Virus record (IMG/VR): IMGVR_UViG_3300047564_001761 | Coordinates: 1 to 55,313 of that record | Reading direction: 5' to 3' (one strand) | DNA length: 55,313 nucleotides | Origin: a virus | Shown here: in pieces, positions 5,778-50,373 of the stretch | How the letters are laid out: every line of letters begins with the position of its first letter | Position numbering within the stretch: the stretch's first letter is position 1 | Position numbers and translations under genes: made by a program | The notes under the pieces: model-generated | Told to the model about the DNA's origin: nothing | What the model saw: the letters and a program-made list of their open reading frames with translations, nothing else | Database searches by the model: none

Positions 5778-6114
5778 CTAGATTAACCGCTTTCTCATCG
5801 TATTTGTAATTGGACCATTGTACTACAGGTGGCTCGTAGTTGTCAAGAATATCCTTGCCTGGACCCTCGTCTAGGACTATGGTATCTATCACACTGGCTA
5901 CCTCAACTGTATCGTTGTCTTTATTGTGGTAGTTATAGTATTTGAAATCAACTCCCCAATACTTTATCATTGTTAGAAATAGTTTCATTATTCGCCGCTG
6001 GACATTTGGTGGTTGCTTCATCACGTTCATGGCAAAGTCTGAGTCTTGGAATCTAATATCTGAAATTGAATCTACTAACTTTTCTACCGCCTTCTCTTCA
6101 TCTCTCTTAGCCAT
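5761..6114 (-). CDS. hypothetical acidic protein, 117 aa, near-leaderless
   Basis: Charged protein with a helical N-terminal half and an acidic C-terminal region. First gene of the 6114-5121 operon. The promoter TTGACA/TAGAAT at 6151-6123 predicts a transcript starting at 6116, only two bases before the ATG. Function not recognised. Confidence 0.65.
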   Translation of the reverse strand: MAKRDEEKAVEKLVDSISDIRFQDSDFAMNVMKQPPNVQRRIMKLFLTMIKYWGVDFKYYNYHNKDNDTVEVASVIDTIVLDEGPGKDILDNYEPPVVQWSNYKYDEKAVNLDDYNQ

Positions 6115-6122
6115 AACTCCCT

Positions 6123-6165
6123 ATTCTACTAAAAATATGTGGGGGTGTCAAGTACCCACCCCCAC
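6123..6165 (-). promoter_or_regulatory. promoter embedded in a terminator-like hairpin
   Basis: TTGACA (6151-6146), 17-base spacer, TAGAAT (6128-6123) on the minus strand. The -35 box sits in the loop of a GTGGGGG/CCCCCAC hairpin (6139-6165) that is followed by ATATTTTTAG and probably terminates the upstream Lsr2-like gene. Confidence 0.65.
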
Positions 6166-6180
6166 CGCTATTAAATTATA

Positions 6181-6315
6181 TTACTTAGTGTTTGGTGCTT
6201 CAAAGACCTTACCTTCGGCCTCTGCATTGCGTAGTGCTTCTACCTGAGCACGTGTGAAACGTCCTCGTGCCCCAACTAGAAATCCTAGTTGCTCTAGATA
6301 TTCACGCTTTGTCAT
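6181..6315 (-). CDS. Lsr2-C-terminal-domain-like DNA-binding mini-protein, 44 aa
   Basis: The sequence KREYLEQLGFLVGARGRF aligns position for position with the DNA-binding domain of actinobacterial Lsr2 (pattern R-x-W-x4-G-x2-V-x2-RGR-I), including the RGR tripeptide that inserts into the AT-rich minor groove. The N-terminal dimerisation domain is absent. By family knowledge Lsr2 silences foreign AT-rich DNA; a lone domain could compete with or modify host silencing. The ATG at 6315 gives the better GGAG spacing; 6321 is the alternative. Confidence 0.65.
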   Translation of the reverse strand: MTKREYLEQLGFLVGARGRFTRAQVEALRNAEAEGKVFEAPNTK

Positions 6316-6345
6316 CCGCATTCTCCTTTTTGTTAGTTTGTGCTA

Positions 6346-6375
6346 ATCCTACCACCATGATAGGAAACCTGTCAA
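6346..6375 (-). promoter_or_regulatory. promoter for the Lsr2-like gene
   Basis: TTGACA (6375-6370), 18-base spacer and TAGGAT (6351-6346) on the minus strand. A short GTCTCA/TGAGAC hairpin (6379-6395) immediately upstream probably ends the preceding operon. Confidence 0.6.
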
Positions 6376-6394: not shown

Positions 6395-6745
6395 CTACTC
6401 TTCCTCTTCTCCGTCATACTCTTCGATAATGCCTTCATCAAGCATCCAGTCCCGTACAGCCTCGTACAGGTCCTCTGTCCCGTATTCCAGTGTGAACCCG
6501 TTCTTGTCCGCCTGTGTGAAGAACAGTTCCCACATCTCTTCTTCATCCATAGTTACGTTGTAATCAGGATCTCCGCCTTCACGGATGTCTTTTAAAATAG
6601 TTATTGCTACATCCCAAGTCCATACCCAAACCAGGGGCGGGAATAAACGAAGTTCCCCTATCTTATCAATGATTATATTGATATCACGGAATGTATCCTG
6701 CATGCGTGTTTTTTCCTGTAGATCCATATCAGTCTTCGTACCCAT
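6395..6745 (-). CDS. hypothetical acidic protein, 116 aa
   Basis: The start is the ATG at 6745, eight bases after GAGGGG; an upstream in-frame ATG at 6784 would overlap the preceding gene too far. The C-terminus is extremely acidic (ending EEYDGEEEE). Mostly helical; no family recognised. Last gene of the 7045-6395 cluster. Confidence 0.65.
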   Translation of the reverse strand: MGTKTDMDLQEKTRMQDTFRDINIIIDKIGELRLFPPLVWVWTWDVAITILKDIREGGDPDYNVTMDEEEMWELFFTQADKNGFTLEYGTEDLYEAVRDWMLDEGIIEEYDGEEEE

Positions 6746-6899
6746 CAAAATACCCCTCTGCCCATAGGCCTTGTAAGAAATCATGAGCCATAACTAAATA
6801 GTTATGGATAGCAGGATTTTCATCAGCATTGACTAATAAGTCTGCTTGATAAACTCCATATGTCATATCTGCTAGATCCTTCTGTGTATAACCTAGCAT
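6729..6899 (-). CDS. 56-aa hypothetical protein
   Basis: Begins MLGYTQKDLADMTYGVYQAD, an amphipathic helical, acidic protein. It overlaps the downstream gene by 17 bases and shares a TAATG junction with the upstream gene, strong support for translation. Function unknown. Confidence 0.55.
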   Translation of the reverse strand: MLGYTQKDLADMTYGVYQADLLVNADENPAIHNYLVMAHDFLQGLWAEGYFDGYED

Positions 6900-8685: not shown

Positions 8686-9371
8686 TATGCGTTCCAATCA
8701 ACGTCGTGGTCTTCAACGGACCAGGAATCAACTGAGACGTCACCATGCCATGAATCAATACTTAGATTGTCACTTAAGAAGTAACGGGCATCGAAATCTT
8801 CTACTTCTTCAAGTGGGATATCGTAGTCTACTTCAACCTGAATAGTTGCAGTAATACGCACTGTTTGCTTTGGCTCGTGCCCAAGAATCTCGCAAAGGTC
8901 GTTTAGAACTTCTACCTTCTCATAGTTTGGGTTATACCAACCGTCAGCGTTTAGGTTATCAATAATGCTATTGACCTGTGTCTGAAGATTATTTAATCTA
9001 GTAGTTAACAACTGATTCTCATGAAGTTGATATTCTAAATCAACAGTCTTGATACTTGGGTAAATTGCCTCACCGTTGACGATAGACTTATATGTAATAA
9101 GACTATTAGGATTGTAGGTCTCAGGGACCGTTGGTGTTAGAATTGGTTCGTACTGATTTTCCATTTGATTACTTTCTGCTTGTAGGGACGAAGGCGCTAT
9201 TGTAGCACTTTCGGATGAGATATGCAACATATCTCGCCCACATGGACATGTGAGCTTTACCACACCAGATGGGAATCCAAACCCATCTGATGTAGTTACT
9301 TCGATCATAGTATCACACTCATCTGGGTCACAGATGAATGTGTACTTGCTAGAGATAATGTCAGACATCAT
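8685..9371 (-). CDS. hypothetical protein with N-terminal Cys cluster, 228 aa
   Basis: Residues 14-46 hold CDPDEC and CPCGRD, a possible four-cysteine zinc site. A coiled-coil segment (YQLHENQLLTTRLNNLQTQV, about 112-131) follows, then an acidic C-terminal domain. Similar acidic C-terminal halves occur in actinophage hypothetical proteins. The start overlaps the upstream stop (ATGATG). Confidence 0.65.
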   Translation of the reverse strand: MMSDIISSKYTFICDPDECDTMIEVTTSDGFGFPSGVVKLTCPCGRDMLHISSESATIAPSSLQAESNQMENQYEPILTPTVPETYNPNSLITYKSIVNGEAIYPSIKTVDLEYQLHENQLLTTRLNNLQTQVNSIIDNLNADGWYNPNYEKVEVLNDLCEILGHEPKQTVRITATIQVEVDYDIPLEEVEDFDARYFLSDNLSIDSWHGDVSVDSWSVEDHDVDWNA

Positions 9372-10132
9372 GCATCTACCTTATCTACTAGAGACTTATG
9401 GATTTCGCATTCTGCCATTGCCTCTTCATCTTGCCATGAACCTTCGTTACATTCAGAGCAGAATTCACCGCATTCATTATCGCAGTAAGATAATGTATCA
9501 AAAGATTGGCAGGCGTAGCAACGATTCTCCCATTCTGCTAATTCTTTTACTTCACCACGTAGAATCTCATACTCTCCACCCCAGCCAGTTTCTTCTTCAA
9601 ACTCTAATGTGAGAAGAGAGTTGGGAACTAAGTTAGATAGTTTAGTTAGAACTGTGACGGCAGGAGACCAAGCAGTCTCATACTTATAAACAAGCCAGTT
9701 ATCCTCACCCTCTGACTTGTGTTCAACCAACTCAGTATTAGGATATTCATCCTCATCACGAACTGCTACATCCCACTTGGTTCCCCAGTTAGTATGATTC
9801 CAGTTATACCAATCCTTTTGAGTCTTAGCAAACTCGACGGACTTAGCAAACCAACTAGGGTCTTTCATATCTACACCATCACGAGCAGGCTGGCAGGCAT
9901 ACTCTTCATCAGTAATACCAGCATCCTTATATGAATAGATATTATGAAAAGCAAAGACAGGATTGTTGTATTCAACCTGAGTAATCTTAGTTGGGAATCC
10001 CATAGAACTAATATCACCCATGCCAAACGTTTCCTGCGCTAGTGTAAACGGACGGTTAAGTCTTTCTTTGATAGAATCAATCTCAGACTTAGGACCTTGG
10101 ATTGTTAATGTATTATATACCCAGTTTGGCAT
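9368..10132 (-). CDS. Api92/DUF1281-like ferredoxin-fold protein, 254 aa
   Basis: The opening MPNWVYNTLTIQG and the following helix (IDSIKERLNRPF) are typical of the Api92-like/DUF1281 family, small ferredoxin-like proteins common on phages and mobile elements. The C-terminal 60 residues add a Cys-rich tail (CYACQSF ... CDNECGEFCSEC) that may bind zinc. The biochemical role of the family is unknown. Confidence 0.7.
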   Translation of the reverse strand: MPNWVYNTLTIQGPKSEIDSIKERLNRPFTLAQETFGMGDISSMGFPTKITQVEYNNPVFAFHNIYSYKDAGITDEEYACQPARDGVDMKDPSWFAKSVEFAKTQKDWYNWNHTNWGTKWDVAVRDEDEYPNTELVEHKSEGEDNWLVYKYETAWSPAVTVLTKLSNLVPNSLLTLEFEEETGWGGEYEILRGEVKELAEWENRCYACQSFDTLSYCDNECGEFCSECNEGSWQDEEAMAECEIHKSLVDKVDA

Positions 10133-20922: not shown

Positions 20923-21494
20923 TAATTACTTACTCTCTTCTCCTTGCATGGTTCTGGCTTAAAGCTTTTAGGATACTGAGCCATCCATGATTTTGTTCTA
21001 GGTGTTAAACCTTTCCAAGAAATCCAGTTGTCTCCACCCTGAGACATGTAAAACGCAGCTTCTGCATTTGTAACTGGATCGAGGAGGTCACGATTATAAG
21101 TTAATTCAAACTTATCTCTACGCTCTGGTCCTAAATTTCCAATCATATTGATTTGGAAAATACCATAAGAGCTATCTCCTGTTTTTGCATTTCCATTATA
21201 AGCAAGTGGCCTACCGTTCGACTCCTTCTTAGCAACGCTCCATGCTTCACGCAGATCTAATCCACGGAAGCCCACACAATAAAGCAGTTGGGCCAGGTCT
21301 TCATCTGAAAATTGCTTGTCCTGCTGACGGAAATCAGACAGGTATACGTATTTTGCATCATCTTGGACTTTTACGCTAGATAATGCTACAATGTTATCAG
21401 CAACTGCGGGTGAGTCAATGCTTGGGAACTGGCTAAATAAATAACCAACAAACACTAGCTTAGCGGCAGCTACTACTAAATTTTTAGTAAACAT
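20922..21494 (-). CDS. secreted lysozyme/transglycosylase-like peptidoglycan hydrolase
   Basis: 190 aa. An N-terminal signal-type helix (VVAAAKLVFVGYLFSQF) is followed by an SLT/lysozyme-like domain with catalytic-Glu context AWSVAKKESNGRP, then GDSSYGIFQIN and NAEAAFYMSQGGDNWISW, typical of lytic transglycosylases. It would cleave the glycan strand of the host wall; the signal suggests export or membrane anchoring as in SAR endolysins. Promoter start is one base before the ATG. Confidence 0.82.
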   Translation of the reverse strand: MFTKNLVVAAAKLVFVGYLFSQFPSIDSPAVADNIVALSSVKVQDDAKYVYLSDFRQQDKQFSDEDLAQLLYCVGFRGLDLREAWSVAKKESNGRPLAYNGNAKTGDSSYGIFQINMIGNLGPERRDKFELTYNRDLLDPVTNAEAAFYMSQGGDNWISWKGLTPRTKSWMAQYPKSFKPEPCKEKRVSN

Positions 21495-21501
21495 GAATAC
21501 T

Positions 21502-21531
21502 ATCTTAACCTATTATGAAAGGATTTGTCAA
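21502..21531 (-). promoter_or_regulatory. promoter for the lysozyme/thyX operon
   Basis: TTGACA (21531-21526), 18-base spacer, TAAGAT (21507-21502); start near 21495, so the message is essentially leaderless. Confidence 0.6.
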
Positions 21532-21534
21532 GTC

Positions 21535-22536
21535 GTGATTTTAAGTTTTAACACAAATCCAGGAAGTCTCAATATAAATACAGGTTATGGATATGCAGGG
21601 TATCATATGGTTACCTCTATGCAAGAGCTTGGACATAAAATTCCTTTTCGTTATCCAAAGTCTAAAGTTCAATTAAATTTTAGTCAACCACAATTTATTC
21701 AATTTAATAAAGGACAAAAACAGATTGCTTTTCATCCGTGGGAATCAACTCAATTAAAACAAGGGTGGCTAGAAACTTTAAAACAAGCAGACGATGTTTG
21801 GGCTCCGTCTCAATGGGTTGCAAACATTTACAAGGATCTTGGAATAGATGATGTTTATGTTTATCCTCATGGTGTAGAAAAATTATGGAAGCCAGTTAAA
21901 AGAAAAACTAATGGGCCACTAAGATTTTTACATGTTGGAGAACCAGCACCTCGAAAAGGTGGACAAATGGTCTTTGAAGCTTTTCTACAAGTTTTTGGAA
22001 ACGATCCAGATTATCAACTAACAATTAAAGCTCATCATTATAATACTATTAGATTATATAATAATTATAATAAATATAATAATATATATAATAAATATAA
22101 TATATCTAATATATATAATATTAATAATATATCAATTATAACAAATGATGTTTCTACAAGTCAACTTGCGGGTATATTTATGACACATCACTGTTTAGTT
22201 TATCCTTCCTACGGCGAAGGTTTTGGCTTCATTCCGCTTCAAGCCCTTGCAACTGGTATGCCAACAATTTGTACTGGAGAATGGGCAGAGTATAAAAAGT
22301 ATCTAGGTGAACTTGAACTCAAGAGTTCTTACATCCCTTCCCCTTGGCCAGACATGCATCCTGGATATATGCCAGAGCCAGACTTCGATCATTTATGCGA
22401 TTTGCTAAAAGATGTTGCAAATAGGTATAATACTCACTCTGAAGTTTTTTACAATCAAGCTGCGGAAGTTGCTCAAGCATTTGACTGGTTACAGTTGACC
22501 AATAATGCTATGAAGAGAATTGAAGAAAAATTTTAA
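21535..22536 (+). CDS. GT-B glycosyltransferase (GT4-like) with AT-repeat-encoded insert
   Basis: Rossmann-type opening ILSFNTNPGSLNINTGYGYA, then FHPWESTQL, VPHG-like VYPHGVEKLW, LHVGEPAPRKGG and the C-terminal sugar-nucleotide motif YPSYGEGFGFIPLQALATG, all typical of GT4 retaining transferases. The GTG at 21535 is preferred; the ATG at 21493 overlaps the divergent gene's start and has no leader. A 28-residue Asn/Tyr/Ile insert sits between the domains near residues 175-202. Substrate unknown, perhaps virion or host-surface glycan. Confidence 0.82.
   Translation: MILSFNTNPGSLNINTGYGYAGYHMVTSMQELGHKIPFRYPKSKVQLNFSQPQFIQFNKGQKQIAFHPWESTQLKQGWLETLKQADDVWAPSQWVANIYKDLGIDDVYVYPHGVEKLWKPVKRKTNGPLRFLHVGEPAPRKGGQMVFEAFLQVFGNDPDYQLTIKAHHYNTIRLYNNYNKYNNIYNKYNISNIYNINNISIITNDVSTSQLAGIFMTHHCLVYPSYGEGFGFIPLQALATGMPTICTGEWAEYKKYLGELELKSSYIPSPWPDMHPGYMPEPDFDHLCDLLKDVANRYNTHSEVFYNQAAEVAQAFDWLQLTNNAMKRIEEKF
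22051..22133 (+). repeat. A/T-only microsatellite-like tract inside the glycosyltransferase
   Basis: About 80 bases of almost pure A and T in degenerate ATA/TAAT/AAT units, encoding runs such as YNNYNKYNNIYNKYN. In frame and free of stops, so length change by threes would keep the enzyme intact while other changes would switch it off. Confidence 0.7.
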
Positions 22537-22571: not shown

Positions 22572-22625
22572 TGTATTTACTAACAGATTTTAAGCCCATG
22601 GATGGGCCAGGAGGAGTATTCGGAA

Positions 22626-24560
22626 ATGTCAGAAACAATTGATAACGCATATGAGAATTTCATTGCACTAAGCAGATATGCAAGATGGATCCCAGAACAT
22701 GGGAGAAGAGAAACTTGGGGAGAAACAGTTGATCGCTATGTCAACTATATGACCAAGCATCTTAAAGATAATTATAACTACGAGCCATCAGCAAGTCTTG
22801 TATTTGAAATTCGTGATTCTATTTTTAATAGAAACGTTATGCCATCAATGAGAGGTGTGATGACAGCTGGAGCAGCATTGGATAGAGATAATGTTGCTGG
22901 TTACAACTGCTCTTTCTTGCCTGTCGATTCACTACGTTCTTTTGACGAAGCAATGTATATCTTGATGTGCGGAACAGGTGTTGGTTTTTCTGTTGAATCA
23001 GTTTATGTAGATAAGCTTCCAGCCGTCAACGAGCACTTTGAAAAGTCTAGCACAGTAATTGTAGTTGAAGATTCAAAGGCTGGTTGGGCAAAGTCTCTCA
23101 GAGAGCTTCTTGCTTTGTTGTGGCAGGGTCAGATTCCAACATGGGATGTTTCTAATGTTCGTCCTGCAGGTGCAAGACTAAAGACTTTTGGTGGTCGTGC
23201 ATCAGGACCAGAACCACTTGTTAATCTTTTTGAGTTTTGTGTTACAACAGTAAAGCATGCAGCAGGTCGCAGACTAAGTTCTATTGAAGCACATGACATT
23301 ATGTGTAAGATTGGTGAGGTTGTTGTAGTTGGTGGAGTTCGACGTTCTGCTTTGATTTCACTTTCAGATCTTCGTGATAACGATATGGCAAAAGCAAAGG
23401 CTGGAGCATGGTGGGAAGCAACAGGTCATCGTGCACTTGCAAATAACTCAGTAGCATATACTGATCGTCCTTCAATGTCAGACTTTATTACAGAGTGGAA
23501 GAATCTTTATGACTCAAAGTCTGGAGAGCGTGGTATCTACAATATTAAGGCTGCACAAAAGCAGGCTGCAAAGTATGGACGTCGTGATGAAACAATTAGA
23601 TACGGAACAAATCCATGTTCAGAAATTATTCTTCGTCCTTATCAGTTCTGTAACCTTTCAGAAGTTATCGTAAGACCAGAAGACAACGAAGAAACACTAA
23701 AGAGAAAGGTTGAGCTTGCCACTATTCTTGGAACATGGCAATCAACACTTACAAACTTTAAGTATCTTCGCAAGATTTGGAAAGAGAATACTGAAGAAGA
23801 AAGACTGCTAGGAGTTTCAATCACTGGCCAGTTCGGACATGAAATGATGTCTGGAAAGCAGGGTCTTGATAAGCTTGAGCAAGTTCTAAATGATCTAAGA
23901 AAAACTGCAGTTATAACTAACTATGATGAAGCAGAAAGAATTGGAATTCAGCACTCAGCAGCTATTACCTGCGTTAAGCCATCTGGAACAGTATCACAGC
24001 TAACTGGAGTTTCTTCAGGAATGCACCCATGGCATAACGACTACTACATTCGTACAGTTCGTGGAGACAAGAAAGATCCTCTAACTCAGTTCCTAATGGA
24101 AGCTGGAGTTCCAGCTGAGGATGACTTTATGAATCCTACTCAAACTAAAGTATTCTCATTCCCAGTAAAGGCTCCAGAAGGAGCTATTTTAAGAAATGAT
24201 CTTACTGCTATTGAACACCTGAATACTTGGCTTGTTTATCAGAGAGCATGGTGTGAGCACAAGCCTTCTATCACCGTTTCAGTCAGAGATGAAGAATGGA
24301 TGGAAGTTGGGGCATGGGTTTGGGAGCACTTCGATGAAGTATCTGGAATCTCATTCTTGCCTTACTCAGATCATACATACAAGCAAGCACCATATCAAGA
24401 TGCTACTAAGGAAGAGTACGAAGAAGCTCTTTCAAAGATGCCAGAAAAGATTTACTGGGAAATGCTAACAATGTATGAAACAGAGGACGGAACTTCAGGA
24501 AGCCAGACCCTAGCCTGCTCTTCAGATGCAGGTTGCGAAGTAGTAGATATTGGCTCTTAA
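22626..24560 (+). CDS. nrdJ: adenosylcobalamin-dependent (class II) ribonucleotide reductase
   Basis: 644 aa from the ATG at 22626, placed after AGGAGGAG; the ATG at 22602 lies upstream of that site. Family motifs: YNCSFLPVDS with the N-terminal redox Cys, MCGTGVGFSVE, the thiyl-radical loop TNPCSEI, CVKPSGTVSQLTG, and a C-terminal TLACSSDAGCEV with the shuttle cysteines. It reduces ribonucleotides to deoxyribonucleotides with B12 in the cytoplasm. Class II is oxygen-independent and common in aquatic phages, implying host cobalamin. Works with ThyX to feed DNA synthesis. Confidence 0.9.
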   Translation: MSETIDNAYENFIALSRYARWIPEHGRRETWGETVDRYVNYMTKHLKDNYNYEPSASLVFEIRDSIFNRNVMPSMRGVMTAGAALDRDNVAGYNCSFLPVDSLRSFDEAMYILMCGTGVGFSVESVYVDKLPAVNEHFEKSSTVIVVEDSKAGWAKSLRELLALLWQGQIPTWDVSNVRPAGARLKTFGGRASGPEPLVNLFEFCVTTVKHAAGRRLSSIEAHDIMCKIGEVVVVGGVRRSALISLSDLRDNDMAKAKAGAWWEATGHRALANNSVAYTDRPSMSDFITEWKNLYDSKSGERGIYNIKAAQKQAAKYGRRDETIRYGTNPCSEIILRPYQFCNLSEVIVRPEDNEETLKRKVELATILGTWQSTLTNFKYLRKIWKENTEEERLLGVSITGQFGHEMMSGKQGLDKLEQVLNDLRKTAVITNYDEAERIGIQHSAAITCVKPSGTVSQLTGVSSGMHPWHNDYYIRTVRGDKKDPLTQFLMEAGVPAEDDFMNPTQTKVFSFPVKAPEGAILRNDLTAIEHLNTWLVYQRAWCEHKPSITVSVRDEEWMEVGAWVWEHFDEVSGISFLPYSDHTYKQAPYQDATKEEYEEALSKMPEKIYWEMLTMYETEDGTSGSQTLACSSDAGCEVVDIGS

Positions 24561-25454: not shown

Positions 25455-26948
25455 ATGGCAAGAGTATTTGCTATAAACATTGATTTAGCTAAAAATCAGC
25501 TGATCAATGCTAGAATTCATAATGCGCCATCCAGTGCAAAGCCTGCAACACCTGGATTAGGTCAAATCTATTTTGATACAACTGACAATTTTTTATATTT
25601 TTGGAATGGAACTTCTTGGTTAAGAGCATCTGGTGATTTTGGTGTTGGCGGAGAAACAACTTCTCTAACTTTTGGAAATACAAAGTCTGACGGAACATCT
25701 ACTGCGGTAGCTCGTGCAGATCATACTCATGAAGTTCCAGACATCCTTGGAACAACTGGAAAGATTACAGTTACAAAAGATGGGACAACTGGCGATGCAA
25801 CAATTACGCTTCCAGACGAAGTAACAGTAACTACAAAAGTAACTGCGCCAGAGTTTGTTGGAGATTTAACTGGTAATGCTCAAACAGCAACAGCTTTTGA
25901 TGGTTTAAGAACTGTAGAGTTAGCTGGAGATGTAGCAGGAACTACAACTTGGGATGGTTCTGGAAATCTTACAATAACTACATCAGTACAAGAAAACTCA
26001 GTAGCACTTGGAACTGATACAACTGGCGATTATGTTGCTGGAGTTTCAGTATCTGGTAATGGTATTTCAGCAACTGGAACTGGAGAAGGAGCCTCAGTTG
26101 CAATTTCTTCAAACGCTACAGCAGACAATGTTGCAAGCACAACAGTATTTCGTGATTCAAGTGGTAACTTCTCCGCTAATAGAATTACAGTAGAAAATTT
26201 AACAATTAATCAGACTCCCACACAAGCTACAGATGCTGCAACCAAGGGTTACGTAGATGGACTTAAGCAGGGCCTTGATGTAAAAGATTCTGTTAAGGCT
26301 GCAACAACCGAAAACATCGCACTTGATCAAACAACAACAGTGCTTGACGGAGTTGCTCTTGCAGATGGAGACAGAGTACTTGTAAAAGATCAGACAGATG
26401 CTGTAGAAAACGGTATTTGGGTTGTAAGCACAACTGCATCATGGACAAGAGCTGTAGATGCAATAAATGGAAAATTAACTGGTGGATCATTCTTCTTTGT
26501 AGAACAAGGTGGAGTAAACGGAGATAACGGTTTCGTACTTGCAACAAATGGTACACCATCTGTTGGGACAGTAGGTCTAATATTCACACAGTTCTCTGGC
26601 GCAGGTCAGATTGATGCTGGTGCAGGACTTTCTAAGGCAGGAAACCTACTAACAGTAAACACTGGACTTGGATTAGAGATTGTTGATGACAATGTAAAAA
26701 TTGACACAGCAATTGTTGTAAGAAAAGCGGCAGCAACAATCCCAGGAGATTCTACAAGCACAACATTTGCAATAACACATAACCTAGGAACAGACGATAC
26801 AACAGTTCAGGTATTTAGATCAACTGGAGATAAGTCTCAAGTAGAAGTAGATGTAGAGCATACAGATACAAACACTGTTACTATTAAGATGGCTCAGAGT
26901 CCAAATGACTTAGGCCTAGGAGCTTTCAGAGTAGTTATCCACGGATAG
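25455..26948 (+). CDS. tail fibre protein, 497 aa
   Basis: Layout: fibre N-terminus (GQIYFDTTDNFLYFWNGTSW), a repetitive Thr/Val-rich shaft, the tail-fibre segment GLDVKDSVKAATTENIAL ... DGDRVLVKDQTDAVENGIW ... SFFFVEQGGVNGDNGFV common in long fibre proteins of marine phages, and a C-terminal ITHNLGTDDTTVQVF domain. Follows AACGAGGAG. Confidence 0.8.
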   Translation: MARVFAINIDLAKNQLINARIHNAPSSAKPATPGLGQIYFDTTDNFLYFWNGTSWLRASGDFGVGGETTSLTFGNTKSDGTSTAVARADHTHEVPDILGTTGKITVTKDGTTGDATITLPDEVTVTTKVTAPEFVGDLTGNAQTATAFDGLRTVELAGDVAGTTTWDGSGNLTITTSVQENSVALGTDTTGDYVAGVSVSGNGISATGTGEGASVAISSNATADNVASTTVFRDSSGNFSANRITVENLTINQTPTQATDAATKGYVDGLKQGLDVKDSVKAATTENIALDQTTTVLDGVALADGDRVLVKDQTDAVENGIWVVSTTASWTRAVDAINGKLTGGSFFFVEQGGVNGDNGFVLATNGTPSVGTVGLIFTQFSGAGQIDAGAGLSKAGNLLTVNTGLGLEIVDDNVKIDTAIVVRKAAATIPGDSTSTTFAITHNLGTDDTTVQVFRSTGDKSQVEVDVEHTDTNTVTIKMAQSPNDLGLGAFRVVIHG

Positions 26949-26958
26949 GAGATAATAG

Positions 26959-29900
26959 ATGGCTAAGAGACTTCTATCTACAGTATCTCTCCCTTCATTA
27001 AGTACAGCACCTACTGGTGCAAATGTTGGCGAACTTTACTATAACACAGCAGATAAAACAGTTCATTCATATACTGGAACTGAGTGGAGACCACTTAGCG
27101 TAGATTATATGAAAGAAATGTTCCTTGGTGGCGCACACGAAGGAATAAATGTAAACTATGACTCTGTAGCAAATACACTTAATTTAGATTTAGATTTAAC
27201 AAAATATTCTTTAGAGCCAGGGGGATTTGAAAATAGAGATGATTCTGAGCTTATTTGGGATGCCCCTTCAAAATCAATAAGATTAAATATAACTGGAAAC
27301 TCTTCTCTGTATTCTCCATATGGTGCATCTCCATATACATTTAAAGGTGCATATGAGAATGGAGCTGATTATAACGTAGATGATGTTGTTACTTACAACG
27401 GTAAATATTACGTAAGAATACTTCCAGCAAATCCAGGTTATCCTCCTGAAACAGAATATTGGGATGCAGGGCATGGACAGCAATGGGCTGAATACTTTTT
27501 AAATCAATATATTTATTATGTTCAGGGCAAGAAGTTTACGAGATTCTTGCCAGATGCAATGAATATACCAGACGATATTGATGGTCTGGTTCCAGGAATA
27601 TATTACATTTATTATGCAGTCGATGGAAACCTTGTTAGAAAAACAACACCATTTAATTTTAAAGATGAGTGTCCAGTAGCAGTAGTAGTAGTTGGCGAAG
27701 ATAGATCTGTTCTCCATGTTGGCGAAGAAAGACATGGAATTGCAATGGACTGGGCAACTCAGTATTATTTGCACAGAACTTTTGGAACACAGTCTACTGG
27801 CGGATTTAATATTGGAAATTACAATATTGCAACAGATGGAACAGCCGATTCAAATTATCAATTCTCTTTAACTGGCGGAACAATATATGATGAAGACAGT
27901 GACTTTACAATAACACATTCTGCTACTCCTTCAGTAGAGGGTGAACAGATATTAGAGCCTATAGCAAACCTTCCAGTTTTATATAGAGTTGGTCCAACTG
28001 GATGGGCTAAAAAGAATCCAAGTCCAATGGCTATTAATGTCAATGGGTCTGGAATACCACAAATAAATGTTAAGTCTGGAACAGACTGGATATCTCAATC
28101 TGCAACAAATAATGATTTTTATGCAGTGTGGATTGTAGCAACAAATAATTTGCTACATCCAATAATTGCTATTATGGGTCAAAGAACAGACACAACAATA
28201 AATGCTGCAAAAGCAAATAACTCTTATGATTCATTAGATCTTATTGGAATTCCAGGATCAGAATTTTATCCTTTATATAGAGTTATACTTCAGCACAAGA
28301 CATCGTACACAAATTCAGCAGCTTCGGTTATAGAAGATGTTTTAGATATTAGATCTTCTTCTGGAGGAACATCTGGTGGCGGCTCTACAACAACTCCAGA
28401 ACACGGAGAGCTTGTAGGATTACTAGATGATGATCATACTCAATATATTCATATATCTAATCCAAGAACTATCGTAGCCGCACACACATTTAATCCCTCT
28501 TCAGTTGGACCAGCTTTTGTGCTTGGACCAAATGCACAAGATTATTTAATAGAGGGCTTAAATGCTGAAATGGTTGGTGGAAATACACTAACTCAAATTA
28601 ACACAACAGCATTTGGATATGCTTCTTCTGCTAAAGATGATGCAATTGCAGCATCTAATGGGTATACAGATGGAAAGTTTACAAACATAGATAGTTACGT
28701 TGCACCTCTCTTAAACCATTCAGGTCATGATGGAGTTCAAGTTGCATGGGATGATTCTCAAAACAAAATAACTTTAAATGTTGAAGAGCCAGTAAGAGTT
28801 TCTAATACTCCTCCAACAGGTGTTGCTGAAGGTGATCAATGGTACGATAATCAAACTGGTGTAATGTATGTTTACGACGGAGCTTACTGGGTTGAAGTAT
28901 CTGGAGGTCTAGGAGCAGATGCGGCGGAACTACCTTCAACAGTACAATATTTGACTGGAACTACATCTAATATACAGTCTCAATTAAATGCAAAGGCTCC
29001 TTTAGCAAGCCCAACATTTACAGGAACCGTCAATCTTCCTAGCAATACATTCTATAATGGAACTGAGTTATCTATTATTTCTAATATACCAAATGCAGCA
29101 CCAAAAGAATCTCCAACATTTACTGGAACAGTTTCTTTGCCAAGTACAACTTCGATAGGAAATGTTTCTTCTTCAGAGATCGCTCACCTCGATGGAGTTA
29201 CATCAAATGTGCAAACACAAATCAATTCTAAAATTTCTGCAAATAATCCTACACTTACTGGAGTCGTAAACCTTCCGTCAACTACATATATTGGATCTGT
29301 AACCCCGATAGAAATAGGTCATTTGGATGGACTAACTGGATCAGTTCAAACACAGCTAGATGATAAAGTTTCTTATGGAAACTTTAATACAGCTAATATT
29401 TCTATTCAGACATATGCAACACTAGCTAATCTACCACCAGCTTCCGCTAATGCTGGAAGAATAGCATATGTTTCTGGAGATGGATATACATACTATTCTC
29501 ATAGCAACGCATGGATTAAGTTAGCTAAGTTTTCAGATATTGCAACTGGCGGAGCAGCATTTCCAATAAACGAACTTTCAGATGTAGATACATCAACAAC
29601 TTCTCCTACATCTGGACAAGTTCTATCTTGGGATGGTTCTAGCTGGGTGCCAGCAACGGTAGCTGGAGGAACAGGAAGTGCTCCGCTAGAAAGCCCAGCA
29701 TTCACTGGTAACGTTTATTTGCCTAATACTACAACTATAGGAGATATTTCATCTACAGAATTATCTTATCTAGATGGAGTTTCTTCTAGCATTCAAGATC
29801 AGTTAGATTTAAAATCTCCTGTTAATGATCCAGTGTTTACTGGTCAGGTATCTCTTCCATCAACAACAAGCATAGGTGGAGTTTCAGAAGAAGAGATTGG

Positions 29901-30627
29901 ATATCTAAACGGAGTAACTAGCGAAATCCAAGCTCAAATAAACTCTAAGTTAAATTCTACTGATTTTAAATATACAGACATTGCCATAAATGCATATGCA
30001 ACAGTCCTAGCTTTACCAGCAGCATCTTCTAACACTGGAAGAATTGCATTCGTATCAGCAGATCAATCAATATACGTTTCAACTGGAACTGTATGGGCTA
30101 GATTAGCAAAGGCTTCAGAAATTTCTGGAACAACTATATCTACAATAAATGATTTAACTGACGTAGATACAGCAACCGCATCTCCTATGACAGGGCAAGT
30201 CTTATACTGGAACGGCACATCTTGGATTCCACAAACGTTAGCGATTCCAACCATAGTTCCTACATATCCAGCAATTACTCAGTTGGAAGTAACAAACAAC
30301 GGAGCAATGGCGTATAACTTCTTAAACCAATATACTGGAGACAATCCATCGCTGTATGCAATTTCTGGAACTACAATTGCATTTAAGCTAAATGTACCAG
30401 GACACCCTTTCTTGATACAAAATTCTTCTGGAACAAATTATAGCAATGGTTTAGTGCATGTTGGACTAGATGGTACCATTTCTACTGGGTCTAATGCTCA
30501 GGGAAAAACAAATGGTACACTATATTGGCAAATACCAGCAACATTAAGCGGAGACTATAAGTATCAGTGTCAAGTGCATTCTATGATGAATGGTATTATA
30601 ACCGTAAAGGATATATCTCTGATATGA
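26959..30627 (+). CDS. large tail fibre with LDGVTS repeats and C-terminal cupredoxin-like domain
   Basis: 1222 aa. Near residues 130-170 a GADYNVDDVVTYNGKYYVRI ... PETEYWD stretch resembles a carbohydrate-binding module. The shaft has about five units of roughly 40 residues with the core TFTGTVSLPSTTSIG ... LDGVTSNVQTQ. A linker with WDGSSWVPATV units follows. The last 100 residues carry VPGHPFLIQ and KYQCQVHSMMNGIITV, with His, Cys, His and Met placed as in blue-copper cupredoxins. Virion surface, receptor binding by inference. Confidence 0.8.
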   Translation: MAKRLLSTVSLPSLSTAPTGANVGELYYNTADKTVHSYTGTEWRPLSVDYMKEMFLGGAHEGINVNYDSVANTLNLDLDLTKYSLEPGGFENRDDSELIWDAPSKSIRLNITGNSSLYSPYGASPYTFKGAYENGADYNVDDVVTYNGKYYVRILPANPGYPPETEYWDAGHGQQWAEYFLNQYIYYVQGKKFTRFLPDAMNIPDDIDGLVPGIYYIYYAVDGNLVRKTTPFNFKDECPVAVVVVGEDRSVLHVGEERHGIAMDWATQYYLHRTFGTQSTGGFNIGNYNIATDGTADSNYQFSLTGGTIYDEDSDFTITHSATPSVEGEQILEPIANLPVLYRVGPTGWAKKNPSPMAINVNGSGIPQINVKSGTDWISQSATNNDFYAVWIVATNNLLHPIIAIMGQRTDTTINAAKANNSYDSLDLIGIPGSEFYPLYRVILQHKTSYTNSAASVIEDVLDIRSSSGGTSGGGSTTTPEHGELVGLLDDDHTQYIHISNPRTIVAAHTFNPSSVGPAFVLGPNAQDYLIEGLNAEMVGGNTLTQINTTAFGYASSAKDDAIAASNGYTDGKFTNIDSYVAPLLNHSGHDGVQVAWDDSQNKITLNVEEPVRVSNTPPTGVAEGDQWYDNQTGVMYVYDGAYWVEVSGGLGADAAELPSTVQYLTGTTSNIQSQLNAKAPLASPTFTGTVNLPSNTFYNGTELSIISNIPNAAPKESPTFTGTVSLPSTTSIGNVSSSEIAHLDGVTSNVQTQINSKISANNPTLTGVVNLPSTTYIGSVTPIEIGHLDGLTGSVQTQLDDKVSYGNFNTANISIQTYATLANLPPASANAGRIAYVSGDGYTYYSHSNAWIKLAKFSDIATGGAAFPINELSDVDTSTTSPTSGQVLSWDGSSWVPATVAGGTGSAPLESPAFTGNVYLPNTTTIGDISSTELSYLDGVSSSIQDQLDLKSPVNDPVFTGQVSLPSTTSIGGVSEEEIGYLNGVTSEIQAQINSKLNSTDFKYTDIAINAYATVLALPAASSNTGRIAFVSADQSIYVSTGTVWARLAKASEISGTTISTINDLTDVDTATASPMTGQVLYWNGTSWIPQTLAIPTIVPTYPAITQLEVTNNGAMAYNFLNQYTGDNPSLYAISGTTIAFKLNVPGHPFLIQNSSGTNYSNGLVHVGLDGTISTGSNAQGKTNGTLYWQIPATLSGDYKYQCQVHSMMNGIITVKDISLI

Positions 30628-30646
30628 TAAATAAGGAAAATCTATA

Positions 30647-32239
30647 ATGGCTACAATATTCCCAGCTAATCCATCCATTAACCAGATATATAATGGTTAT
30701 CAATGGAATGGTACTGCCTGGAAGATTATAGATAATTTTACTGAAAGATCTCAAGATGCTGTATCATCTTTGTTTACTCATACAAATCACTCAAATGTAA
30801 GCGCTGTATATAATGATGAAACAAACCAGATAATATTTACTGCTTCTGCAACATTAACGCAAGAACAAATACAGGATTCTGTAGCACCACTTTTAAATCA
30901 CGTAAATCATCAAAACATAGACGTTTTGTATGATGACGATAATAATAAGCTTATACTAGAAGCGGTTATTCCTCCTTCTAAGGCAATAATTTCTGCAACT
31001 GCCCCAACCTCTCCTCAAGATGGAGAGTTCTGGTTTGATATAGACGATTTGCGTGGGGACATAAAGGCATTAAAGGTTTGGAATGCCACTTCTTCTGCAT
31101 GGGAGTATGTTAGCCCAAATCTAGGTCTGTCTACAACTAACTCTTGGACAGCAAAAAATACATTTAGCCAAGGTGTTGTAATTGGACTTTCCTCTTCACC
31201 ATCATCTCCAGTAGAAGGCCAAGTTTACTACGATACAACTTTAGACACATTGCGAATCTGGAATGGCACTCAATGGACAACAGTAACTGGTGGTGGGGGT
31301 GGCGGATCAGCATTCTCCTTAATATCTACTGACACAACTCAAGTTCCAGCAATTATGTTTTTTGGAGCAGCAGCTCCTTCAGGCGGAACTCAAAACGTAG
31401 GTGATTTATGGATTGATATAGATGATGATGCTGGAGATACAGAGTTTATACATGTTGGTCCTGATGCGCCAGATACTTATGGTGCAGGAACATTGTGGGT
31501 AGATACAGATGAGCCAGAACTTCCTTTAATATATTCTGATGAGGAGCCTCCAAATCAAACTCCAATCGAGGGAGACTTTTGGGTAGACATTGATGATCTA
31601 GCTGGACAACTGGTAACAGTAAGAGAAACAGCACCCCTACCATCAGAGTCCGAACTTTGGATTGATACTTCTACAGAAGAAGGACTAGAAACATTTACAG
31701 TTGCAAATGTATATGAAGGAAATAGGTCAGTATTTAATACAGTAACAGATTTACCAAACGCTTCAACTCATGGTGGAATGATTGCGTATGTAGAGCAAAA
31801 CAAATCTCTTTATGTGTCAAGAGTAGATATCCCAGAATATACCCTTGCTGCTACTTATACTATTTCAAACAATGGGTCATTAAACTATACAATTAATGGA
31901 AATTCTAATGCGCCTATAATTTTGCAAAGAGGTAAAAAGTATATATTCAATATAAATTCACCAGGACACCCATTTTGGATTAAAACTCAGCCTTCGGCTG
32001 GAGTTAACTTTGACTGGTATTATGGAGTCGTAAATAATGGCTCAGACAGTGGTTCTGTAATATTTAATGTGCCATACAATGCTCCAGACAACCTATACTA
32101 TGTTTGTCAAGGGCATGAGGCTATGAGTGGATCAATAACAGTAACTGGAACAGTCACATTAACCTCATCTTGGGAAAAGCTTTACCCAAATGATGCAAAA
32201 GATCAATTAGAGGTCTTTGGTTACATGGGATTATTATAA
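30647..32239 (+). CDS. tail fibre protein with second cupredoxin-like domain, 530 aa
   Basis: Repeated segments pattern GEFWFDIDD / GDLWIDIDDDAGDT / LWVDTDEP (each starting a fibre unit), then a C-terminal SPGHPFWIK ... YYVCQGHEAMSGSITV cupredoxin-like domain with the same His-Cys-His-Met set as the 1222-aa fibre. After it, a short tail ends in EVFGYMGLL. AAGGAAAAT ribosome site. Confidence 0.75.
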   Translation: MATIFPANPSINQIYNGYQWNGTAWKIIDNFTERSQDAVSSLFTHTNHSNVSAVYNDETNQIIFTASATLTQEQIQDSVAPLLNHVNHQNIDVLYDDDNNKLILEAVIPPSKAIISATAPTSPQDGEFWFDIDDLRGDIKALKVWNATSSAWEYVSPNLGLSTTNSWTAKNTFSQGVVIGLSSSPSSPVEGQVYYDTTLDTLRIWNGTQWTTVTGGGGGGSAFSLISTDTTQVPAIMFFGAAAPSGGTQNVGDLWIDIDDDAGDTEFIHVGPDAPDTYGAGTLWVDTDEPELPLIYSDEEPPNQTPIEGDFWVDIDDLAGQLVTVRETAPLPSESELWIDTSTEEGLETFTVANVYEGNRSVFNTVTDLPNASTHGGMIAYVEQNKSLYVSRVDIPEYTLAATYTISNNGSLNYTINGNSNAPIILQRGKKYIFNINSPGHPFWIKTQPSAGVNFDWYYGVVNNGSDSGSVIFNVPYNAPDNLYYVCQGHEAMSGSITVTGTVTLTSSWEKLYPNDAKDQLEVFGYMGLL

Positions 32240-32248
32240 AGAATTTGG

Positions 32249-32254
32249 TATAAT
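32249..32254 (+). promoter_or_regulatory. extended -10 element (GGTATAAT type)
   Basis: TTTGGTATAATTCTATAAGG lies before the collagen-like gene. Similar AAGGTATAAT sequences occur at 38320 and 41248, always in short gaps of this block, suggesting internal late promoters. Confidence 0.5.
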
Positions 32255-32274
32255 TCTATAAGGAGTGTGAGCTA

Positions 32275-32838
32275 ATGTCATTAAAACGCTATGATGGAAC
32301 GCAATGGGTTACCGTTGCTGGTTCACGTCCAGGCCCTACAGGTCCAGCAGGACCTCAAGGCCCAGCAGGTTCACAGGGGCCAGCAGGCCCCGCAGGTGCG
32401 GCAGGCCCAGCAGGACCACAAGGTCCGCAAGGAGTCGCAGGCCCAGCAGGTTCACAAGGAATTCAGGGTCCTATTGGTCCAACAGGTGAAAGAGGCTCAA
32501 AGTATTTTACTGGCTCATTGAATCCAGTTTCAACTTCTGGCTACTTCACTGGAGATCAGTTTTTAAACACCACAACTGGTGACCTATTTACATTTAGTGC
32601 ACTTCCAACACCAGCTTGGACACTAGCGGATAATATTATTGGTCCAGCAGGACCGCAAGGCCCAGCAGGACCAACAGGTCCTACTGGAGAAATTGTTGTG
32701 GCGGACATTGAAAGAAGAGTATCTGCATATGAGTTAGATATTCTGCTAAACTTAGGTATATACTTTCCAAAGTATAATACCCTTGCAAATCTTTCAACAG
32801 TTACTGGAACAATTTCAGCAACAAGCTTTATTCTATAA
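32275..32838 (+). CDS. collagen-like tail fibre protein, 187 aa
   Basis: Residues about 18-75 are uninterrupted Gly-X-Y triplets ([19 protein letters not shown] and on), with a second short block [17 protein letters not shown] near 123-139. Gly-Pro-X repeats can form a triple-helical stalk. The rest is a fibre-type globular region. Pro in the Y position would be the substrate of a prolyl hydroxylase, and one is encoded at 45101. Confidence 0.8.
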
Positions 32839-45100: not shown

Positions 45101-45802
45101 ATGGAAAAAACAGCATGGCAATTATACAAAGAGCAAAACTCAACAGCTCCTGCTAAAAAGGAAGTTGTTTTTAATCCAGAGCCAATAAATTTTACAAAAG
45201 TAGAATTAGCTCCAGGGGTATGGATTTATAAGAATGTTTTTCCAAGCCCAGATGATCTAGTCGCAAAGATCAATTCTGAGTTTGAGTCAAGTTGGCAAGA
45301 TGGCCAAGTGTTTAGTAATGGCGACGAAAAGAAAGAAGAAATAAACAAAAAATTTAGAGATTGCTCTGTGGTTGTAATCAATAAGCCAAATGAAGATTCA
45401 AGCGAGCAGAGAGATTTGCTGTATAAGCTTGTAGATCATTCAATGAGGGTATGCCTAGAAGACTATACAGCTATGTTTGGCATGAGTATGACAGAGCTTA
45501 TTGGTGATGAGTGGCAAGTTTTAAAGTACGGACACGGACAGCATTTTGATGGCCACGCAGATGATGGATTTAGATTCCCAAGAACAGTTTCTATTACAGC
45601 ATATCTCAACGATGAATATGAAGGCGGAGAGCTAGACTATAAGCACTTTAATCTATTCTTTAAGCCAGAAAAGGGAGACGTATTAGTATTTCCATCCAAC
45701 TATGTATATAACCATCGTGTTGTAGAGGTAAAGACTGGTGTAAGATACGCATTGGTAAATTGGTTTAGATGGAAGACTATGAAGGTGGATATGTTATCAT
45801 GA
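45101..45802 (+). CDS. 2-oxoglutarate/Fe(II) oxygenase, prolyl-4-hydroxylase-like
   Basis: 233 aa. Catalytic facial triad visible: HFD (H-x-D) in YGHGQHFDGHADD and the distal His in YNHRV; the 2-oxoglutarate-binding Arg is in TGVRYALVNW. GGELDY and GDVLVFPS are the conserved strands of the double-stranded beta-helix. Family members hydroxylate proline or other residues using O2 and 2-oxoglutarate. The AYLNDEYEGGEL text matches P4H-type enzymes. Cytoplasmic; likely acts on phage or host proteins. Its neighbour 45799 is a second such enzyme. Confidence 0.85.
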   Translation: MEKTAWQLYKEQNSTAPAKKEVVFNPEPINFTKVELAPGVWIYKNVFPSPDDLVAKINSEFESSWQDGQVFSNGDEKKEEINKKFRDCSVVVINKPNEDSSEQRDLLYKLVDHSMRVCLEDYTAMFGMSMTELIGDEWQVLKYGHGQHFDGHADDGFRFPRTVSITAYLNDEYEGGELDYKHFNLFFKPEKGDVLVFPSNYVYNHRVVEVKTGVRYALVNWFRWKTMKVDMLS

Positions 45803-46368
45803 ATATAAAAGTACAAGAACCAAGAATTATAAAAGATTTATTTTCTCAGCCAGATTATGAGAGGTTAAAGAATTACCTATACTCATATGAAAAAACAGAT
45901 TCTACCTACGATAAGTACTTTGGTAGATACTGTTTTCATGATCCATTAATAGATGAGTATGCAAAGAAGATAACTCCCTATGCCAGAAAAGTTTTTGGTA
46001 GTGACACACTAGTTCCGTCCTACTCTTTATTTGCACACTATGAAGGGTCAGAAGCAAACTTGTTCAAGCATGTAGACGATAATGCTTGCACATATACTTT
46101 AGATATGTGTGTGTATCAGAATGAGCCATGGGATTTATGGGTAGATGATAAACCTTATGAACTGTATCCTAATGAAGCTCTAGCATATTATGGAAATGAT
46201 CAGATGCACTGGAGAGAAAAGTTTCCAAATCCAAATTCTCAACATGTAGCAATGATATTTTTTCACTTTATTGAGCCAGACCACTGGTATATAACAAAGG
46301 GTCCTTCGTATTTAGAAGTTATTAGAGGAATAAAAACGGAAGATCAATGGAACAGCGAACAGCACTAG
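45799..46368 (+). CDS. second 2-oxoglutarate/Fe(II) oxygenase-like protein, 189 aa
   Basis: Start is the ATG in the ATGA overlap with the previous gene, not the earlier in-frame ATG at 45769. KHVDD supplies H-x-D; MHWREKF supplies the distal His and a nearby Arg; LFAHYEGSEANLFKH is the upstream strand. More divergent than the first enzyme, so substrate differs or is unknown. Confidence 0.7.
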   Translation: MNIKVQEPRIIKDLFSQPDYERLKNYLYSYEKTDSTYDKYFGRYCFHDPLIDEYAKKITPYARKVFGSDTLVPSYSLFAHYEGSEANLFKHVDDNACTYTLDMCVYQNEPWDLWVDDKPYELYPNEALAYYGNDQMHWREKFPNPNSQHVAMIFFHFIEPDHWYITKGPSYLEVIRGIKTEDQWNSEQH

Positions 46369-47315
46369 TATTAGGTGCAGGCGGTTTTATAGGAAGCCAT
46401 CTAGTAAAAAGACTCAAGGAAGATGGCTTTTGGGTCAGAGGCGTAGATTTAAAGCTTCCAGAATACTGGGACACATACGCAGATGATTTTGTAATAGGTG
46501 ATCTAAGAAACCCTATTGTTGTAAATAAAGTTATAGACATACGTTTTGATGAAGTCTACCAGCTTGCCGCAGATATGGGTGGCGCTGGATATATAAATAC
46601 TGGAGATAATGATGCAGAAGTAATGGGAAACTCAATTCTTATTAATGTTAATGTGTTAAAAAGATCTCATGACATAGGGATAAAAAGTGTTTTTTATTCT
46701 TCTACTGCATGTGTTTATCCAGAATATAATCAGATGGATCCAGATTCAATAAATTGCCGTGAAGATTCTGTTTATCCAGCTGCACCAGATACAGAGTATG
46801 GATGGGAAAAGCTTTTTAGCGAAAGGCTATATCTAGCATACAACAAAAACTATGGTATGAAAAACAAAATTGCAAGATACCACAACGTCTTTGGTCCGTA
46901 CGGAACATATGATGGTGGAAAAGAAAAAGCTCCAGCTGCTATATGCAGAAAAGTAGCAAAAGCTGATTCTAATATTGAAATATGGGGAAGCGGAAAGCAA
47001 CATAGGTCATTTTTATTTATCGATGAATGTATTAAGGCAACAGTTGACTTCTATAGGCAGGAAGGCTTTAATGAGCCTATAAACATAGGTTCTGAAAGAT
47101 CAGTATCTATAGATGAGCTTGTAGATATAGTTTCTTCTATAGCAGGAAAAAATTTAGTTAAAAAGTATATTGACGGTCCAATTGGAGTTCATGCAAGAAA
47201 GTCAGAGAATTCCCTAATCAGAAAAGTTTTAGGTTACGCACCAAAAGAAAATTTAGAGCATGGGTTGTCGGTTACCTATGCTTGGATATCAGAAAGGATC
47301 AGCAATGAAAAATAA
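46347..47315 (+). CDS. GDP-mannose 3,5-epimerase-like NAD-dependent epimerase
   Basis: 322 aa. Rossmann motif GAGGFIGSHL, then YQLAADMGGAGYI, catalytic SSTACVYPEY and YGWEK (Y-x3-K), ARYHNVFGPYGTYDGGKEKAPAA and WGSGKQHRSF, the specific hallmarks of GDP-mannose 3,5-epimerase. It converts GDP-mannose to GDP-L-galactose or GDP-L-gulose. Supplies a nucleotide sugar to the following O-fucosyltransferase-like enzyme. Overlaps both neighbours. Confidence 0.85.
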   Translation: MEQRTALVLGAGGFIGSHLVKRLKEDGFWVRGVDLKLPEYWDTYADDFVIGDLRNPIVVNKVIDIRFDEVYQLAADMGGAGYINTGDNDAEVMGNSILINVNVLKRSHDIGIKSVFYSSTACVYPEYNQMDPDSINCREDSVYPAAPDTEYGWEKLFSERLYLAYNKNYGMKNKIARYHNVFGPYGTYDGGKEKAPAAICRKVAKADSNIEIWGSGKQHRSFLFIDECIKATVDFYRQEGFNEPINIGSERSVSIDELVDIVSSIAGKNLVKKYIDGPIGVHARKSENSLIRKVLGYAPKENLEHGLSVTYAWISERISNEK

Positions 47316-48339: not shown

Positions 48340-48410
48340 GAAGATTCCTGTATAAATATAAAATGTGGAAAAAATATAGGAAGATTAAAAAAAGTAATTT
48401 AACCTACTGA
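48312..48410 (+). CDS. 27- to 32-aa basic peptide before the SGNH gene
   Basis: Frame from GTG 48312 or, after GGGAGGAG, a possible rare ATT start at 48327; ends at 48410 in a TGATG overlap. Its FLYKYKMWKKYRKIKKSNL resembles the 28-aa peptide at 50287. Both precede cassette enzymes. Uncertain. Confidence 0.35.
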   Translation: MGGVKISFLRRFLYKYKMWKKYRKIKKSNLTY

Positions 48411-49357: not shown

Positions 49358-49358
49358 T
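49353..49358 (+). promoter_or_regulatory. TATAAT placed for a leaderless message
   Basis: TATAAT at 49353-49358 predicts a start exactly at 49365, the ATG of the second SGNH gene. It overlaps the end of the first SGNH gene. No clear -35 is seen. Confidence 0.45.
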
Positions 49359-49364
49359 ATTGGT

Positions 49365-50294: not shown

Positions 50295-50373
50295 GATAAA
50301 GTCTATTTTTTATAAAATAAGATATTATAAAATATACAGAGAATTAAAAAAGAAGAGCGATTACACATACTGA
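50287..50373 (+). CDS. 28-aa basic Tyr/Lys-rich peptide
   Basis: MNKIKSIFYKIRYYKIYREL, then KKKSDYTY. Starts inside the SGNH gene end and its stop overlaps the next ATG, so translation coupling is exact. Similar to the peptide at 48312. Could be an interaction tag or coupling leader. Confidence 0.5.
   Translation: MNKIKSIFYKIRYYKIYRELKKKSDYTY

What the first reader, a model, noticed from the sequence alone, without database searches (positions are those of the whole stretch)
6181..6315. Lone Lsr2-type DNA-binding domain
KREYLEQLGFLVGARGRF matches the Lsr2 C-terminal RGR domain without the oligomerisation part. It could cap host Lsr2 filaments or compete for AT-rich phage DNA, an anti-silencing strategy.
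Basis: partly seen in the sequence, partly recalled or inferred. Interest (0 to 1): 0.65.

Follow-up and report, generated by a model that had tools for sequence, protein, structure and literature searches.

The report
Phage mini-protein: lone Lsr2-like DNA-binding domain
A freshwater phage that probably infects actinobacteria carries a 44-residue protein consisting of little more than a distant copy of the DNA-gripping part of the bacterial gene silencer Lsr2; the gene is conserved in many related phages and has its own promoter, so it may loosen the host's silencing of foreign DNA, though no binding or antagonism has been shown.

Summary
Window 6315-6181 (-) encodes MTKREYLEQLGFLVGARGRFTRAQVEALRNAEAEGKVFEAPNTK, a real gene. 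66 distinct stand-alone relatives (about 40-54 aa) occur in related IMG/VR phage contigs, all pairs compared are under purifying selection, and gene order is conserved. Pfam's Lsr2 DNA-binding model does not call it. Its direct match (PHROG 6269, 'Lsr2-like DNA bridging') is to the N-terminal domain of two-domain Streptomyces-phage proteins, whose canonical Lsr2 domain lies further in. Profile-profile comparison nevertheless links this domain to the canonical Lsr2 DNA-binding domain (probability 96%; score 42 against at most 24 in 150 shuffles that kept the RGR). AlphaFold predicts helix, RGR loop, helix. No Lsr2 oligomerisation domain was found in this record or 16 relatives. WhiB in all 16 relatives, and the ribonucleotide reductase, point to an actinobacterial host. 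The gene has its own promoter, invariant in its -35 hexamer among close relatives. Best reading: a small, non-bridging, AT-rich-DNA-binding protein, most plausibly a competitor or modulator of host Lsr2-type silencing. DNA binding and presence of Lsr2 in the host are untested; 'capping filaments' has no support, because the part that contacts Lsr2 is missing. New variant of a known kind.

The parts
6181..6315 (-). Lone Lsr2-DNA-binding-domain-like protein, 44 aa (start ATG 6315-6313, stop 6183-6181)
6259..6267 (-). codons for the RGR triplet (AT-hook-like motif); residues 17-19, invariant in the 40-row alignment
6323..6330 (-). Shine-Dalgarno-like AAAAGGAG, about 7 nt before the ATG at 6315
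   Evidence: sequence inspection
6346..6375 (-). sigma-70-type promoter TTGACA-N18-TAGGAT with TG before the -10; the TTGACA is invariant in the seven closest sequences
   Evidence: a promoter at the same place in 70 of 106 loci
6395..6784 (-). Conserved acidic gene (129 aa as listed, pI about 4.1), the nearest conserved upstream neighbour in 86 of 91 loci
6729..6899 (-). conserved neighbour, 56 aa
5121..5492 (-). conserved neighbour, 123 aa (PHROG 31860, unknown function)
9368..10132 (-). conserved marker gene of this phage group (254 aa), same strand and cluster

Best explanation
The gene encodes a free-standing, probably monomeric, Lsr2-type DNA-binding domain of an actinobacterial phage (helix, loop carrying RGR, helix). 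It is made from its own sigma-70-type promoter. [quoted passage not shown] It would thereby compete with or loosen host Lsr2-type silencing complexes on the AT-rich phage genome. Shown: a real conserved gene; homology to the Lsr2 DNA-binding domain at profile level; lone architecture; no PF11774 in the record or relatives; a conserved promoter-like sequence of its own. Inferred: DNA binding, actinobacterial host, high expression. Inferred with less certainty: antagonism of host Lsr2.
For: PHROG 6269 E=1.5e-7. hhalign to Lsr2-type domains: probability 96.6%, E=6.5e-10 over 30 columns; score 41.8 against a maximum of 24.0 in 150 shuffles that keep RGR; 77% against the M. tuberculosis domain alone. 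Invariant R4, Y6, R17-G18-R19. AlphaFold pLDDT 85.6, helices 3-10 and 22-33; in a Daubenski-phage protein both the homologous domain and the canonical Lsr2 domain come out as helix-loop-helix (low-confidence model). One copy per record in 17 of 17; PF11774 in 0 of 17. Median pI 10.4, net charge +2 (window) to +8. WhiB in 16 of 16 relatives. Promoter in 70 of 106 loci against 0.007 expected per 130 bp; TTGACA invariant in the seven closest. Precedents in papers: DNA-binding-domain-only Rok_LS20 (PMC7074111) and multivalent weak silencer binding that is open to competition (PMC4466236).
Against: No Pfam or NCBIfam hit; PF23359 in relatives stays below its cut-off (best E=0.0036). PDB and BFVD fold searches give nothing significant, which is weak evidence for so small a fold. 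A single domain binds DNA weakly. The window protein has net charge of only +2. The host and its Lsr2 were not identified. Loss of host Lsr2 hurts some mycobacteriophages (PMC10066036), so antagonising it is not obviously good for every phage.
Confidence: 0.42

Rival explanations
1. It is a phage-internal regulator or packaging/nucleoid factor: the lone domain binds particular AT-rich sites on the phage genome (promoters, replication or packaging regions) and tunes phage transcription or replication, with no interplay with host Lsr2.
For: Same DNA-binding anatomy. The upstream region of some relatives carries a dyad (TATTTACAAAATTGTAAATA) overlapping the promoter, so the gene itself looks regulated. 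The phage genome is about 39% G+C.
Against: No sign of sequence-specific recognition; Lsr2-type domains read AT-rich minor groove with little sequence specificity. The dyad is absent from the window.
Confidence: 0.33
2. It works as a subunit: the lone domain is tethered to another phage protein (for example the acidic neighbour at 6395-6784) that supplies oligomerisation, rebuilding a split Lsr2-like bridging protein.
For: The neighbour is next upstream in 86 of 91 loci, same strand, with opposite charge (pI about 4.1 against 10.4). In Streptomyces-phage proteins the same domain is fused to a canonical Lsr2 domain and a further C-terminal region.
Against: No interaction evidence; the other neighbours checked are acidic too; the lone gene usually has its own promoter.
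Confidence: 0.12
3. It is not a DNA-binding protein: the helix-loop-helix is used for protein contacts and the RGR is coincidental.
For: No Pfam match; the second helix diverges from Lsr2 and extends to a conserved G..F.
Against: RGR is invariant in the 40 aligned sequences; similarity extends beyond RGR; basic protein; fused to canonical Lsr2 DNA-binding domains in relatives.
Confidence: 0.13

Closest known systems
N-terminal domain of the 'Lsr2-like DNA bridging protein' of Stanwilliamsviridae Streptomyces phages (PHROG 6269)
   Same: Direct homologue, 37-50% identity over about 40 residues; R/KGR loop and G-x-x-F end conserved
   Different: There it is fused to a canonical Lsr2 DNA-binding domain and a cysteine-containing C-terminal region; here it stands alone (Rhodococcus phage Weasels2 gp207 is intermediate: this domain plus a C-terminal region only)
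[quoted passage not shown] PDB 2kng, 6qkp, 6qkq)
   Same: Helix, RGR loop, helix; R-E-Y/W, G and RGR columns align
   Different: Too divergent for the Pfam cut-off; no N-terminal oligomerisation domain (PF11774); second helix runs on to a conserved G..F
Short lytic-phage Lsr2 proteins reported in PMC10066036
   Same: Truncated phage Lsr2 relatives proposed to act by interference
   Different: Those keep mainly the oligomerisation domain and lack the DNA-binding domain; this one is the reverse
Ku-Lsr2 fusion of cluster J mycobacteriophages (PMC8612146) and Rok_LS20 (PMC7074111)
   Same: A xenogeneic-silencer DNA-binding domain used apart from its oligomerisation domain
   Different: Ku fusion, or a different fold family (Rok winged helix)

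Membership tests
Lsr2 DNA-binding domain (PF23359) | Match above the curated Pfam cut-off | tested here: not met
   No match in the window; best in relatives 14.4 bits against 26.9
Lsr2 DNA-binding domain (PF23359) | Homology at profile level beyond the RGR | tested here: met
   hhalign probability 96.6%; beats 150 of 150 RGR-preserving shuffles
Lsr2 DNA-binding domain (PF23359) | Two helices joined by an RGR loop | tested here: met
   AlphaFold model, pLDDT 85.6; no PDB match by Foldseek, uninformative at this size
Lsr2 DNA-binding domain (PF23359) | Binds AT-rich minor groove | not testable with these tools
   needs EMSA or NMR
Full-length Lsr2 nucleoid protein | N-terminal oligomerisation domain PF11774 | tested here: not met
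   0 of 17 phage records; 44 aa leaves no room
Full-length Lsr2 nucleoid protein | DNA bridging | not testable with these tools
   needs biophysical assay
PHROG 6269 Lsr2-like DNA bridging protein | N-terminal domain | tested here: met
   E=1.5e-7, positions 4-46 of 188
PHROG 6269 Lsr2-like DNA bridging protein | Second (canonical Lsr2) domain and C-terminal region | tested here: not met
   protein ends after the first domain
Phage anti-silencing protein | Relieves host silencer activity; host carries Lsr2 | not testable with these tools
   host not identified; both genome-contig scans empty

The most novel reading that the evidence does not exclude
A widespread family of stand-alone Lsr2-type DNA-binding domains made from a dedicated promoter in freshwater actinophages, acting as minimal counter-silencers: the mirror image of the oligomerisation-only Lsr2 truncations seen in soil actinophages.
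Probability: 0.35. Interest if true: 0.7.

Novelty: new variant of a known kind. Interest (0 to 1): 0.5.

Why it matters
The roles of phage-encoded Lsr2 relatives are open (PMC8612146, PMC10066036). A minimal, single-domain version conserved across a large phage group is a clean test object: one domain, no oligomerisation, one promoter. It would show whether phages use the DNA-binding half alone to loosen xenogeneic silencing.

Tried and rejected
Capping of Lsr2 filaments: rejected as unsupported, no oligomerisation domain. Chance ORF: rejected by conservation and pN<pS. Sequence search of PDB and fold searches: nothing significant. Direct Pfam and NCBIfam: nothing. Two genome-contig scans, for bacterial carriers of the domain and for genomes holding the phage: nothing (69, 71), so host Lsr2 could not be examined; relatives cannot be drawn for a virus record (87). 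Rfam on the upstream region: nothing (106). The Enterococcus and faecal-phage tblastn hits were chance matches inside unrelated longer frames (47). The 101-aa ORF on the opposite strand (5942-6247) was taken as incidental and not pursued.

Full report
What is there. The minus strand at 6315-6181 encodes a 44-residue protein, MTKREYLEQLGFLVGARGRFTRAQVEALRNAEAEGKVFEAPNTK. An in-frame ATG two codons earlier (6321) is the less likely start: AAAGGAG stands right beside it but about 7 nt from the second ATG, and relatives start at the equivalent of the second.

Is it a real gene? Yes. The search for related loci fetched many IMG/VR contigs with the same stand-alone protein; a profile search of their ORFs gave 66 distinct lone sequences, about 40-54 aa from the aligned ATG. 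In 595 of 595 pairs pN is below pS; among the 76 closer pairs the median dN/dS is 0.37. The gene sits in a conserved cluster, on the strand of its neighbours; the acidic 129-aa gene is the nearest conserved gene upstream in 86 of 91 loci. These loci are not independent: some contigs are held twice and all are relatives. That the group is freshwater is my inference from the kind of contigs and was not tested.

Is it Lsr2-like? Pfam, NCBIfam and PDB sequence searches are silent. The one direct family match is PHROG 6269, 'Lsr2-like DNA bridging protein' (E=1.5e-7), and tblastn finds relatives among isolates almost only in Streptomyces phages, with a weak one in Rhodococcus phage Weasels2. The label needs care. 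In those proteins the match is to an N-terminal domain; the segment Pfam recognises as the Lsr2 DNA-binding domain is the next one, and that one aligns to solved Lsr2 structures. So the annotation alone would not prove the point. Profile-profile comparison does more: the domain family against Lsr2-type DNA-binding domains gives probability 95-97%, and the score of 41.8 exceeds all 150 column shuffles that kept the RGR in place (maximum 24.0). Against the single M. tuberculosis sequence the probability is 77%. The comparison set was mostly phage Lsr2 domains, which is a limit. Weak PF23359 matches in relatives fall on this same gene in nearly every record examined, but below the cut-off.

Fold. 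AlphaFold with 40 sequences gives helix 3-10, a loop carrying RGR (17-19), and helix 22-33, pLDDT 85.6. A low-confidence model of the Streptomyces-phage Daubenski protein gives the same helix-loop-helix for its first domain and for its canonical Lsr2 domain. Foldseek against PDB and BFVD finds nothing significant, as expected for 44 residues.

Architecture. The known isolates carry this domain fused to a canonical Lsr2 domain and a C-terminal region with cysteines; Weasels2 gp207 has the domain and a C-terminal region without the canonical Lsr2 domain. The window and its close relatives carry the domain alone. The Lsr2 oligomerisation domain PF11774 is absent from the window and 16 relatives, and none of four isolate records reaches its cut-off. 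Each of the 17 records has exactly one copy of the lone domain.

Host. WhiB, an actinobacterial regulator, is found in all 16 relatives searched, though not in the 55-kb window. The B12-dependent type of ribonucleotide reductase is closest, at about 67%, to Streptomyces phages such as Coruscant and Mildred21 of Stanwilliamsviridae. An actinobacterial host is thus likely; its identity and whether it has Lsr2 are unknown.

Expression. The gene has a promoter-like sequence of its own. In the window TTGACA-N18-TAGGAT with TG before the -10 lies at 6375-6346; TTGACA is invariant in the seven closest sequences. In the wider group a TTTACA/TTGACA-N16-18-TATAAT promoter lies within 130 bp upstream in 70 of 106 loci, against 0.007 expected per 130 bp. 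In some relatives a dyad overlaps it.

How it probably works. [quoted passage not shown] the isolated C-terminal domain of Lsr2 binds with a Kd of about 4 uM while full-length, multivalent proteins bind with much higher affinity (PMC4466236). A lone domain is therefore expected to be a weak, non-bridging binder that needs quantity to matter; a dedicated consensus-like promoter fits. The most likely use is occupation of AT-rich phage (or host) DNA in competition with host Lsr2. The alternative, a phage-internal regulator, is almost as good. Filament capping is not supported, since the oligomerisation domain needed for contact with Lsr2 is missing.

Known context. Phage Lsr2 relatives are common and their roles unclear (PMC8612146). 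Lytic phages with Lsr2 truncated to the oligomerisation part have been proposed to act by interference (PMC10066036); Ku-Lsr2 fusions carry the DNA-binding part (PMC8612146); Rok_LS20 is a DNA-binding-domain-only silencer relative (PMC7074111). I found no description of a lone Lsr2-type DNA-binding domain family in the papers searched.

Noticed in passing
L012:393-671 and L015:387-665 (Streptomyces phages BillNye, Wakanda): 92-aa proteins made of two tandem Lsr2-type DNA-binding domains without an oligomerisation domain, next to the three-part Lsr2-like gene.
   Followed up: partly
L011:1501-1875 (Rhodococcus phage Weasels2 gp207): Annotated 'Lsr2-like DNA bridging protein' but PF23359 does not match it; only the N-terminal domain discussed here plus a short C-terminal region is present.
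   Followed up: partly
window 6395-6784 (-): Very acidic conserved gene (pI about 4.1) next upstream of the lone Lsr2-like gene in 86 of 91 loci; possible partner or DNA mimic.
   Followed up: partly
L078, L127, L149, L098 upstream of the lone gene: Dyad TATTTACAAAATTGTAAATA overlapping the promoter; 21 of 26 copies in the fetched loci lie within 200 bp upstream of this gene.
   Followed up: partly
window 22602-24560 (+): B12-dependent ribonucleotide reductase about 67% identical to Stanwilliamsviridae Streptomyces phages, although the stretch searched has no other DNA-level match to known phages.
   Followed up: no
window 45101-51800 (+): Run of auxiliary genes: 2OG-Fe(II) oxygenase-like, nucleotide-sugar epimerase, Nol-like carbamoyltransferase; with the glycosyltransferase at 21493-22536, perhaps sugar modification of DNA or virion.
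   Followed up: no
window 25455-32838 (+): Tail and baseplate genes with T4-like 'baseplate wedge tail fiber connector' matches and collagen-like tail proteins in a presumed actinophage.
   Followed up: no
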